Positions 49,327 through 53,863 of a DNA stretch of 64,000 nucleotides are shown one piece after another. The notes beneath the pieces were generated by a model, which made no database searches, was not told the origin of the DNA, and saw only the letters and a program-made list of their open reading frames with translations. Source of the stretch: Isoetes taiwanensis. Its lineage: Eukaryota > Streptophyta > Lycopodiopsida > Isoetales > Isoetaceae. The DNA lies in contig JAJEKV010000020.1 of NCBI GenBank assembly GCA_021234155.1, positions 19,087,018-19,151,017 on the forward strand. Direction: 5' to 3'. Position numbers and translations under genes: made by a program. The first letter of the stretch is position 1, and each line of letters begins with the position of its first letter.

Positions 49327-50998
49327 TCATAAGAGTGGAAGCAGGACTATAAATGCAATACAATTGTAAGTGTAATTGAAGCATCTCATATCAAGAAATG
49401 AATATAAATTAAAGAATGCATGCCAATCTGCAATTGCATTCCTGCAACTCTTCCGGTTATGGCGTCCATATTGCCCACACCTTGAGCATCTGCAAGGACG
49501 AATTTCTTTGAAGCGATCCTTCGTACGGATCCGTCTCTTTTTTGGACGTCTTGGCGGCTTACGTGTAGCAGGAGGTTTCAGATTTGTCTCTTCTTCCTCC
49601 AAGACATCTTCAAATGGAAATATTGCGCCTACATATGCATCACACCATGCCTTTAATGAATATCCTGGATGAGCATACTCTTGTGGTCTTCTTTTGAACC
49701 AGAGGATTGCTCCTACTGCATGAGCACAAGGAATTCCTCTATGCTGCCAAGCACAACAACTGCATGTATAATGTTAAAGATCCACAATCCGCCTATGCTC
49801 CAGTGTGATAACTTCAAATACAATGCCATTTGAAGGTAAAATTCTGTACTGCCTAGCCCGAGTAAGTGATTCTGTGATGCGCTTTTCCTCCTCAGGCACT
49901 AATGTGTAAGCTGCACTTTGCCCTGCAGATACCAATGCTCGTTCTAGCTTCATTACCTCGTTTATGAAACCTCTCCATCAATGATTGTCTAATATCCGTA
50001 AGCATGGCAATAATTGGTTTCTCCCTGGCCTCAAGCAATAAAGAATTCAAAGACTCTGATAAATTTGAAGTAAGGTGACCAAAGCGTTGTCCCTGGAAAT
50101 AAGCTGTAGCCCAGCACTCAGGTGGTGCAGTTTCTAACAACCAATCTGTTGCTACAGTATTCACTTTTCTCATATTAGCAACTTGTTCATTGTATTCAAC
50201 GATTGTGTTTGCTCGTACCGCTTCCCAAAAGCAATGCAGAAACTCAACATTATTGCATTTCTTCTTGAGGTTTGCCTCAAGATGTCTCATGCAATATGCA
50301 TTTGGGCAGCCAGGGAAAATAGCATACAAAGCCTCCTGCAAACCCTTGTCTCTGTCTGATACAAATGTAAGCCCTGCATCTACATGTAAACTACTGCATA
50401 GATGCTGTAAAAACTAAATCCAATTCTCTACATTTTCATTATCAATTATTCCAAATGCCACAGGATAAAGTCCTCCTGTGCCATCTAAACCTGTAGCACA
50501 AATCAAATGGCCAAGATATTTACCTGTTAAAAAGGTGCCATCCAATCCCAAGAAAGGCATGCAACTCATAAATCCAGTAAGACAAGCTCCAAAAGCAAAG
50601 AATGCCCTGTAAAAACGTCCTCCACTTTCTTCAATGGCAACATAACATCCTGGATTGCTCTCTAAGAGTTTCTGGCAAAATGCATGTAACTTTCTGTACC
50701 CTCTTTGATAATCTCCATCAATAATAGCCATGGCTATCTCTTTTGCATTATAAGCAACTGTATATGTGACTGTAACACCTGCTTCTCTACGAAAATCATC
50801 AATCAACTCAGCAGGTTTATAATGTGGATGCTCCCTGAATTTATCCTGATATTTCATGGCTAACCATCTTGCTGCGGCTTCCTTGTTATTCAATTGTTGA
50901 ACACCACTATATGTGTGTTCTCCTACTGCTCGAACTACACATCTTGGCCCTCCCTCCAGCAATGACGGAGCCGAATAAATGCCATTGACAATGCTCAT
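49327..50998 (-). pseudogene. MuDR/MULE-type transposase, lightly disrupted
   Basis: Starting near 50998: an N-terminal DNA-binding region (CVVRAVGEHTYSGVQQLNNK, the MuDR zinc-finger tail), then the DDE core with FLGLDGTFLTGKYLGHL (first Asp) and ISDRD-like FVSDRDKG (second Asp), then YCMRHLEANLKKK and WATAYFQGQRFGHLTSNLSE (the usual catalytic region). Next come a SWIM zinc finger (YTCSCCAWQHRGIPCAHA, near 49750) and a C-terminal CCHC knuckle (CSRCGQYGRHNRKSC, near 49450) after a basic stretch. Disruptions are one TAG at 50414-50416, a frameshift near 49920, and a TAA just before the SWIM motif. The layout is that of plant Mutator-like transposases. Confidence 0.9.
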
Positions 50999-50999
50999 C

Positions 51000-52489
51000 T
51001 TTGCACTTCACCCTGTATCTCAATTTATCGGATTTTATGACTATAAATTCAGTATGGGATGCAATGGCTTGTGTTCAAACTGCAGATTTAAGGTCTGACA
51101 GAGAATCAAATTGCAAATTTTTTTCTAACTGGGCCATTGGGTCCAATTTTGGCTACTGTAATCCTGTTTCTTTCAAAACCAAACATGCAAATCACTTACA
51201 GGAAAAGGTTTCCAAGCATGAAATCTTCAACGAATTCCTTCCAGATTCAGAGGGCTTCCAAGCAGAAACTCCAACGAATTCCTTCCAGATCATGTTTACC
51301 GGCTTGCTTCCAGATCCAAGGTCATGATGCTTTGCTGAAACAACAAGAAGAATCGGATTTAGAGCGGTCTGCTTCTGGCGCGAAATGCAGTAGCCGTTTG
51401 CCAAAAAAAAAGGGGTATTTTGATAATTTTTGTAAATACAGGAGTAATTTTATAATTATATTAAGATATAAGGGTAATTTTAGAATTTTCCCTTTATAAT
51501 TTGATCTAAAGGTTAAATTCATTGGAATCACGATTTGATGCACTAATACCTTTCTCTTGGCGCCAAGTCATGAAAATGGTATTGAAAAGAGGACAGGATT
51601 CCCAAGTAGTAACTGAAGTGGATTTTGGAACTGCTTTGTATTACTGGCCTCCTTCCCCAATCGTTAATAAAATGAAAATTTCAATGGATCCGCGTATAAA
51701 GAGCTGCTTGTAACTGGCAGCAAATATAATACATAGCAATACATATTATCCGGTTCTCTCATGAATATAAATTTAAATGGAAATCTTAAGCATAACCATT
51801 ATATGTTAACTACATGTGCAATTAATCAAAGCAACTATACTACATTTTCTAAAACTCCCCAGATCACAGAGAAATCTTACTTGGTTGTTGCATTGCACAT
51901 CAGACCATTTTCTGTACATGTCATTAAAGTGGTTAGTAATCTGGATGTGATATCCACCAGATCCATTGATGGCCTTAAGTATTATGTTGTGTATTTCTTG
52001 TGATGAAGCGCGCATGGTTTCATATTGCCTGGCGGAAGTTATATCATCTCTATCAGTATTACAAACATAGGTTGTTTTTGGTGTCTTGCTTTGTATTGCC
52101 TTATAATCTGTTAGCACCTCCATGGTTTATTTTGGATCTCAGCTATTGTGTAGGCTCTCATATGAGCTTAGATTGGTTCTAAGTTTTCTGAAATGGAAGT
52201 ATGTAGCCATGCATAACATGCTCTTCAAAGGTAAAACGGTGAGAGCAAGTTCGACGAAGGTTATGCCCATGCAATCTGGGAAATTATATATTGAAGAATG
52301 GATGTGTGGCTAGGCTTTTTCGAAAGCCCAGATCCTTTGGTGACTTATCTTGTACAGAAAGGCTGCACACAACCCCATTTTATTGCATTACAAGTATTTG
52401 GATGCAATGATAACATAAACTCATTTACATCTGCAGATATGTGAAGAAATCGATGGAGCTCACTGGTTTGGATGGGCAATAGTTAATGA
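51000..52489. other. Unassigned stretch; possible MULE right end
   Basis: 51405-51493 is AT-rich and ends GGGTAATTTTAGAATTTTCCC. Reversed, it resembles GGGAAATTTCTAAAATTGCC at 45754-45773, so these could be the two ends of the MULE. TTCCTTCCAGAT occurs twice at about 51237 and 51280. The rest holds no recognised gene. Confidence 0.35.
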
Positions 52490-52497
52490 CCTCTCTG

Positions 52498-53855
52498 GGG
52501 TAGTCTTCGTTATACAGCCTCCCCCCCCCCTGACGTGGACTAAAATTGCCACGCGGGTATAAAAAACCGACGGACGGCGAACAATTTTCGCGAACATTCT
52601 CTGATTTGTTGCATCCCGTTAACTTCTGTTAGTTTATTAAATGAACTAGTCGTTGCTAAACAGACTCGATCCGATGAAGCGCTCCCCAAAAACGCTCCCG
52701 ATCCGACACCGCTCCCCTAAACCTTCAAAAATCGAAATGGACTGCATTTCTTCAGGGTTCTTGAGGTTCTTCATCTGCTCCAGCAGTTCTTTACGATGTT
52801 TGAGGATCAGCAGCATAGAGTCAGCATTGTCAAATGGAGTTCTTGGATGTAGAACAGAGGATTTCATCAATGTCCGATCTGATTTTGAAGACCTCAAGTA
52901 ATCTTTGTTTTTGGATTTGGGTTTACTGCCATATAGAAGGGAATGTGAGAAATGCCAGAAATCCATGAAATTAAGAACAGACAATGCAGGCACTAGGGAT
53001 GGTAAGAAATGGAAATGTAAAGGAAAGAGGTGCAATTTTACCTGCAGTCTTCGTAAAGGCACTTGGTTTGCAGGCAGCCGTCTGACGTTGTCACAAATCT
53101 TGAGACTAATCTACTGTTGGTCGATCCAAATGCCTCAAGATCGTGCTAAGATTGAATGTGGAATAAAAATAGATGAAACGATGGTCAATTGGTACAATTA
53201 TTGCAGGGATATTTGTAGCATTGCAATATAGAAACAGAATGAGATCATTGGTGGCCCAGGCAAAGTGGTTGAGATTGATGAAAGCAAGTTCGGTAAAAGA
53301 AAATACAACAGAGGGAGAAGAGTAGAAGGTCAATGGGTATTCGGTGGCATAGAACGCAATTCCAATAACATGTTCATGGTTCCAGTTGCAGATCGTACAA
53401 AAAATACTCTCACAGACATTATTTTCGAATATGTGGCTCCATGAAGTATCATCTACAGTGACTGTTGGGCAGGATATGATACAGAATGGTTGTCTCAGCT
53501 TGAATATGAGCATTACACAGTTAATCATAGCCTGCATTTCAAAGATCCTGAAACAGGTGTTCACACCAACAGAATTGTCTGTGAGCTCATCAATGGGCCA
53601 GAAGAAGAAGGATAACAATCGCTCTCTGTTTTCTTGTTCTCTCTGTTTTCTTATGCTGTAAAAATCGTTCTGATATCTTCTGCTGTAAAATCCGTTCTGG
53701 TGTAAAAATCGATCTGTTATCTGTTTCTCTGATATTGTCCGCTAAAACATTTTTGACCAAAACATTTGTCTCCCGTTAACGCCGTCCGTCGGTTTTTTAT
53801 GCCCGCGTGGCAATTTTAGTCCACGTCGAGTGGGGCTGTATAACGAAGGTGTCCC
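52498..53855 (+). mobile_element. Merlin-superfamily DNA transposon, complete copy
   Basis: Terminal inverted repeats of about 80 bp (52498-52579 and 53780-53855) start GGGTAGTCTTCG and GGGACACCTTCG and share CTTCGTTATACAGCC, GACGTGGACTAAAATTGCC and CCGACGGACGGCG. A perfect 8-bp target duplication CCTCTCTG flanks it (52490-52497 and 53856-53863). The interior (1.2 kb) encodes an ISXO2/IS1595-type transposase relic on the plus strand. Long inverted repeats, 8-9-bp duplications and an ISXO2-like DDE transposase define the Merlin superfamily. The left repeat carries a poly-C expansion that the right one lacks. Confidence 0.9.
52653..53615 (+). pseudogene. Merlin (ISXO2-like) transposase relic
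   Basis: One plus frame is open over the whole length except TAA 52899-52901, TAG 53229-53231 and TGA 53442-53444. A zinc ribbon, CEKCQKSM then WKCKGKRCNFTCS, is at about 52935-53050. The DDE core follows: EIDESKFGKRKYNRGRR with the first Asp at 53277-53279, WVFGGIER, then IIYSDCWAGY with the second Asp at 53460-53462, and HSLHFKDPETGVHTNRI. In this family the third acidic residue comes right after that last block (usually a NxIE pattern); here the frame continues VCELINGP and stops at 53613-53615. The third residue and the C-terminal helix region are therefore missing. The copy is dead. The true start is uncertain; the family's N-terminus probably begins near 52850. Confidence 0.88.
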
Positions 53856-53863
53856 CCTCTCTG

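What the first reader, a model, noticed from the sequence alone, without database searches (positions are those of the whole stretch)
52490..53863. A complete Merlin DNA transposon in a plant genome
Seen: matched inverted repeats of about 80 bp, a perfect 8-bp target duplication CCTCTCTG, and a zinc-ribbon plus ISXO2/IS1595-type DDE relic between them. Known: Merlin is related to bacterial IS1016-like elements and was described mainly from animals and some protists; reports from land plants are sparse as far as I recall. Inferred: this lineage hosts or hosted a Merlin family. The sharp ends and conserved motifs suggest other, possibly active, copies.
Basis: partly seen in the sequence, partly recalled or inferred. 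Interest (0 to 1): 0.85.

Follow-up and report, generated by a model that had tools for sequence, protein, structure and literature searches.

The report
Defective Merlin transposon in a quillwort
This is a broken copy of a cut-and-paste jumping gene called Merlin in the genome of a quillwort, a plant that also carries related copies with unbroken genes and short copies that seem to have moved recently.

Summary
A 1358-bp element (52498-53855) has ~80-bp inverted ends and an exact 8-bp duplication, and a paralogous site elsewhere in the genome lacks it. It carries a relic of an IS1595-type transposase. By assembly size the host is Isoetes taiwanensis, a lycophyte.

The ends are complete; the transposase is not. 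Against sibling copies it has a 13-bp frameshift deletion, two in-frame stops and a 159-bp deletion (3-bp filler) that removes the catalytic glutamate. It is a non-autonomous derivative.

The genome gave 70 matches to the transposase domain. Seven distinct elements have paired ends with exact 8-9-bp duplications. Seven loci have unbroken transposase frames with D, D and E; two of these also have an exact duplication. Another lineage left short MITE-like derivatives: 6 of 15 fetched have exact 8-bp duplications, and two 267-bp copies are identical at unrelated sites.

A 2021 survey found Merlin in plants only as truncated or degenerate copies (Selaginella, Rhodamnia). New here is a lycophyte with several Merlin lineages, open frames and signs of recent movement: a new member of a known superfamily, not a new kind of system. 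Present activity was not shown.

The parts
52490..52497 (.). left target-site duplication CCTCTCTG
   Evidence: empty paralogous site in L053
52498..53855 (+). Merlin element, 1358 bp, transposase relic on the + strand
52498..52579 (+). left terminal inverted repeat, tip GGG
   Evidence: matched at 8 places of the genome
53780..53855 (-). right terminal inverted repeat, tip GGG on the minus strand
52870..53615 (+). transposase relic; relative to siblings a 13-bp deletion after about 52901 shifts the frame
   Evidence: alignment with L003 and L041; open frames of siblings
52944..53033 (+). CxxC...CxxxxC zinc-ribbon-like motif in the piece 52902-53231
   Evidence: translation; no zinc-ribbon model over its cut-off
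53229..53231 (+). in-frame stop TAG (not a stop in open siblings)
53277..53279 (+). codon of the first catalytic Asp (VEIDES)
   Evidence: with alignment A1; catalytic role inferred from the domain
53442..53444 (+). in-frame stop TGA (not a stop in open siblings)
53460..53462 (+). codon of the second catalytic Asp (SDCW)
   Evidence: with alignment A1; catalytic role inferred from the domain
53578..53580 (+). 3-bp filler in place of 159 bp present in L041, a deletion that removes the catalytic Glu and most of the C-terminal part
53856..53863 (.). right target-site duplication CCTCTCTG

Best explanation
The element is an internally deleted, non-autonomous copy of a Merlin-superfamily cut-and-paste transposon in a lycophyte (Isoetes taiwanensis by assembly size). 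Shown: paired ends with an exact 8-bp duplication, an empty paralogous site, a sibling insertion at another site, and related copies whose transposase frames are open. Inferred: a Merlin transposase made from another copy bound the inverted ends, cut the element out and joined it to a staggered cut of 8-9 bp, which repair turned into the flanking duplication. The internal deletion probably arose by faulty gap repair, as is known for other cut-and-paste elements; whether it preceded the last jump cannot be told. Short MITE-like derivatives of another lineage spread the same way. Recent movement is likely; activity today is unproven.
For: Exact duplication and inverted ends. Empty site for the window copy and for sibling L041. 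L041: same ends, own duplication CTCAATCT, 975 of 997 aligned bases identical, no match between 200-bp flanks, a different internal deletion. Seven distinct elements with exact 8-9-bp duplications among 42 fetched stretches, some overlapping; controls 0 of 33 and 0 of 210. PF12762 over the cut-off in L003 and matched by 7 of 7 open frames, 70 genome matches. Invariant D, D, E. MITE-like copies: 12 of 15 with both ends, 6 of 15 with exact 8-bp duplications, L059 and L060 identical over 267 bp with unrelated flanks.
Against: 34 of the 42 stretches gave no exact duplication in the scan (many are fragments). 5 of 12 two-ended MITE-like copies have no duplication, L059 among them. No open-frame pair is nearly identical: dS 0.20 and 0.31 for the closest two. 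The one fetched element of the MITE-mobilising lineage, L019, is itself broken. The empty sites are old paralogues (71% and 75% identical), not alleles. The joined-flank search for L018 showed no empty site. No expression or polymorphism data were at hand.
Confidence: 0.95

Rival explanations
1. The Merlin families of this plant are all extinct: open frames survive by youth or chance, and nothing moves now.
For: Most fetched copies are broken or truncated. The closest open pairs differ by dS 0.20 and 0.31. The window copy and L041 differ by 22 of 997 bases. Only two open-frame loci have an exact duplication.
Against: Two 267-bp derivatives are identical at unrelated sites. L003 and L016 combine an open frame with exact duplications. 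dN/dS 0.165 and 0.292 in the two measurable close pairs.
Confidence: 0.5
2. Some of the open frames are domesticated host genes, not transposons.
For: No exact duplication was found around L009, L010 and L012, their frames are open with D, D, E kept, and dN/dS is 0.292 for L009/L010.
Against: L010 still has about 70-bp inverted repeats around its frame. L015 has candidate ends with 7 of 8 flanking bases matching (my reading). Broken relatives of L012 exist (L013, L037).
Confidence: 0.07
3. The element is a hAT or Mutator transposon, which also make 8- or 9-bp duplications (recalled).
For: Duplication length alone.
Against: 7 of 7 open frames of the family match DDE_Tnp_IS1595 and none matches a hAT or MULE model, even at E up to 10. 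The tips are GGG.
Confidence: 0.01
4. The sequence is contamination from an animal, protist or bacterium.
For: None found; Merlin is best known from animals and protists (PMC8101967).
Against: The copy lies in a 21-Mb scaffold, related places lie on 51 contigs, the window has PPR repeats, copia gag and MULE relics, and a paralogous empty site lies on another scaffold of the same assembly. Prokaryotic relatives are 24-34% identical.
Confidence: 0.01

Closest known systems
Merlin superfamily (Feschotte 2004, recalled and as described in PMC8101967; sections read)
   Same: DDE_Tnp_IS1595 domain, ends with GG tips, 8-9-bp duplications, single transposase gene of about 300 codons, no Zn_Tnp_IS1595 model match.
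   Different: Host: a lycophyte with several lineages and open frames; ends whose tips differ at positions 4-7 while the inner repeat pairs.
Merlin-1_Smo of Selaginella and degenerate copies in Rhodamnia (PMC8101967, section 10 part 1)
   Same: Merlin in a land plant; Selaginella is also a lycophyte.
   Different: Those are described as truncated or degenerate, with functional copies absent; here seven loci have open frames with D, D, E. Sequences could not be compared: the Selaginella element was not available to me.
Bacterial IS1595 family (IS1016 and relatives)
   Same: Same catalytic domain; 7 of 7 open frames match NCBIfam NF033547 at E up to 0.001, L003 with 92 bits over a cut-off of 75.
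   Different: The full Isoetes rows are 24-34% identical to the five prokaryotic or viral rows compared, and the 25 Isoetes rows are one side of a branch with support 100/99.

Membership tests
Merlin superfamily | transposase with DDE_Tnp_IS1595 domain (PF12762) | tested here: met
   7 of 7 open frames at E up to 0.001; the window copy's pieces alone stay under the cut-off, the locus read through a stop passes it
Merlin superfamily | 8- or 9-bp target duplications | tested here: met
   8 bp in the window copy and five others, 9 bp in L003, all exact
Merlin superfamily | terminal inverted repeats of 24-462 bp with 5'-GG tips (as given in PMC8101967) | tested here: met
   about 80 bp with GGG tips in the window copy; GG tips were a condition of the scan for the others
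Merlin superfamily | conserved D, D, E with 50-70 residues between the first two blocks | tested here: met
   D141, D203, E242 of L003 invariant in 7 of 7 open frames; in the window copy the E is deleted
Merlin superfamily | no Zn_Tnp_IS1595 domain | tested here: met
   not among the families matched by any of 7 members at E up to 10; HMMER's filters may drop weak matches, and a CxxC-type motif is present
Merlin superfamily | groups with other eukaryotic Merlins in a tree | not testable with these tools
   no eukaryotic Merlin sequences were available; only prokaryotic and viral rows
IS1595 family (bacterial insertion sequence) | match to the IS1595 transposase model over its cut-off | tested here: met
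   L003 92 bits over 75; 7 of 7 match at E up to 0.001
IS1595 family (bacterial insertion sequence) | falls among bacterial members | tested here: not met
   25 Isoetes rows separate from 8 prokaryotic or viral rows, 100/99
hAT or Mutator superfamily | hAT or MULE transposase domain | tested here: not met
   no such match in the open frames at E up to 10 or in the window pieces at E up to 1

The most novel reading that the evidence does not exclude
Merlin is still mobile in a living vascular plant: at least one lineage of I. taiwanensis makes a working transposase that moves full-size and MITE-like copies today, against the published view that plants keep only degenerate Merlin.
Probability: 0.35. 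Interest if true: 0.62.

Novelty: new member of a known kind. Interest (0 to 1): 0.45.

Why it matters
Merlin in plants was reported only as truncated or degenerate copies, and its loss from later plant lineages was inferred from that (PMC8101967, section 10 part 1 read). That survey is dated May 2021, before the I. taiwanensis genome paper of November 2021 (PMC8566536). A lycophyte with several lineages, open frames, empty sites and identical short derivatives makes persistence versus loss of Merlin in land plants testable and offers a plant in which Merlin transposition could be tested.

Tried and rejected
Relatives in genome contigs: 168 pattern hits, none confirmed. In viral contigs: 2 of 330 confirmed, 28% identical. 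tblastn in plasmids: 49 records, none covering 80% of the query; in phages: 1 record. Solved structures: one chance-level match, E 0.99. The first tree held a wrong-frame row, L028_frag, with a branch of 4.5; it was dropped and the tree rebuilt with 33 of 34 rows. Four loci given to that script (L006, L007, L020, L030) yielded no row because no frame passed its text filter. A first scan of the MITE-like copies picked an inner palindrome as ends in several; it was replaced by a scan with the ends of L019, for which no shuffle control was run. The joined-flank search for L018 gave, besides its own flanks, 38 matches that lie to one side of the junction, 40 of 1533 candidates being scored. Of six joined flanks prepared, three were searched. 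A large MITE family with the window's own end was rejected: that end matched 8 places; the end of L016 matched 7; the end of L013 did not complete. Structure prediction was not used, because its rule does not list loci from the genome search. hAT or Mutator and contamination were considered and rejected as above.

Full report
Host. The window is G000:C1019:19087018-19151017 in an unnamed assembly of 1,658,258,908 bases and 1110 contigs. The I. taiwanensis genome paper gives 1658.30 Mb in 204 scaffolds plus 909 contigs (PMC8566536, passages seen). I take the host to be that quillwort; the call rests on size and on a near-equal number of pieces. Of seven window frames scanned, six matched Pfam: glutaredoxin, PPR repeats, two MULE pieces, a reverse transcriptase and a copia gag, as expected of a plant.

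The element. It spans 52498-53855 (1358 bp) between two copies of CCTCTCTG. The ends pair over about 80 bp with GGG tips; the tips differ at positions 4-7. With the flanks joined, the genome gave three matches: the two flanks themselves and one paralogous place, C1025:6763509-6763902. Over 579 columns it is 71% identical, with no gap for about 30 bases around the junction, and it lacks the core of the end sequence. In place of the target it has one 8-bp stretch, 4 of 8 bases the same. This supports the boundaries independently of the inverted repeats.

State of the window copy. Against L003 and L041 it has a 13-bp deletion early in the frame, TAG at 53229-53231, TGA at 53442-53444, and a 159-bp deletion with 3-bp filler at 53578-53580 that removes the catalytic glutamate and most of the C-terminal part. 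It cannot encode a working transposase.

Siblings. L041 (C1034, 1170 bp) has the same ends, its own exact duplication CTCAATCT, a different internal deletion, 975 of 997 aligned bases identical, and no match between 200-bp flanks. A paralogous place on C1047 spans its junction without the element: 160 of 213 columns identical, 6 of 8 target bases the same, no gap near the junction. Two deleted copies at different sites with the same ends fit mobilisation in trans; this is inference.

The family at large. The DNA search gave 68 matches, 40 of 107 candidates scored. The domain search gave 70 matches from 91 candidates, all listed as over the Pfam cut-off, stops read through. Merging 46 of the 68 DNA matches (the 22 short ones left out) with the 70 domain matches gives 86 places on 51 contigs. 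Among 42 fetched stretches, some overlapping, 8 have exact duplications around paired ends: 7 distinct elements, since L003 and L011 are one. They are the window copy, L003 (9 bp), L013, L016, L018, L019 and L041. Controls gave 0 of 33 window chunks and 0 of 210 shuffles. L006 has 7 of 8. The other stretches gave none in that scan.

Open frames. I found seven loci (L003, L005, L009, L010, L012, L015, L016) with unbroken frames of 301-320 codons from a chosen ATG. D141, D203 and E242 of L003 are invariant in all seven; that these are the catalytic residues follows from the domain and is not tested. L005 has a small deletion just after the glutamate. Only L003 and L016 combine an open frame with an exact duplication; around L009, L010 and L012 none was seen, and L015 has 7 of 8 at candidate ends (my reading). 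dN/dS is 0.165 for L003/L005 and 0.292 for L009/L010; in four of the seven pairs run dS could not be computed and in one, L003/L015, it was near saturation. This fits past selection on the transposase and does not prove activity.

Lineages. A tree of 33 rows puts 25 Isoetes rows on one side of a branch (100/99) from 8 prokaryotic or viral rows. I label A (L003, L005, window), C (L016, L018 and others), D (L012, L013, L037) and E (L009, L010), each held together with starred support, L019 apart, and B (L015, L014 and others), which the tree does not resolve as one clade. The full Isoetes rows are 24-34% identical to the five prokaryotic or viral rows compared. No eukaryotic Merlin could be added, so vertical or horizontal origin stays open.

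MITE-like derivatives. The end of L019 matched 44 places, 40 of 51 candidates scored. Of 15 stretches fetched, 12 have both ends 245-411 bp apart; 6 have exact 8-bp duplications (L057, L058, L060, L061, L064, L071), one has 7 of 8 (L063), five have none (L059, L062, L065, L066, L067); three lack the second end. L059 and L060 are identical over 267 bp and match nowhere in the flanks fetched; L060 has its duplication, L059 does not. Bases 80-191 of L060 are 96% identical to part of the L019 element on C999, so it is likely a deletion derivative. This is the best sign of recent movement. The fetched L019 transposase is broken, so the enzyme that moved these copies is not identified.

Known literature. 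Of PMC8101967 I read the abstract, sections 3, 14 and 15, and part 1 of sections 10 and 11. It reports Merlin in three Selaginella species with functional copies absent, and degenerate copies in Rhodamnia, after tblastn of almost 700 plant genomes. Searches with Merlin plus lycophyte, fern, moss, Isoetes, Selaginella or MITE listed no paper that I recognise as reporting Merlin transposons in Isoetes; this is judged from listings, and one search showed 15 of 25. One hit uses 'Merlin's grass', a common name of Isoetes. The main texts of PMC8566536 and PMC10541799 hold no 'Merlin'. A table in PMC13260365, a grass genome, lists Merlin with 0 copies. The library holds only openly licensed papers and supplements could not be read, so a repeat table naming Merlin in Isoetes may exist.

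Verdict. Ordinary in kind, notable in host: a defective Merlin in a lycophyte whose genome holds several Merlin lineages, open transposase frames and short copies that seem to have moved recently.

Noticed in passing
G000:C1053:1504227-1598870 (parts in L028, L029, L034, L035): 10 of the 70 transposase-domain matches lie within 95 kb of one scaffold, partly as inverted neighbours; local duplication or nested insertion was not told apart.
   Followed up: no
G000:C1049:11756002-11762509 (L014, L022, L026); C445:1067693-1070568; C918:1636255-1639030: Facing Merlin pairs: on C1049 an inverted pair 98.9% identical over 720 bp; on C445 and C918 pairs about 1.27 kb apart with an end-like stretch between them.
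   Followed up: no
L019 element against L003, L013, L016 and the window copy: The two tips differ (TAG-type and ATCA/ACA/AGA-type). In L003, L013, L016 and the window copy the TAG tip lies upstream of the transposase; in L019 it lies downstream. Unexplained.
   Followed up: no
window 49892-51007: MULE transposase relic in two adjoining open pieces on the minus strand, about 1.5 kb left of the Merlin copy.
   Followed up: no
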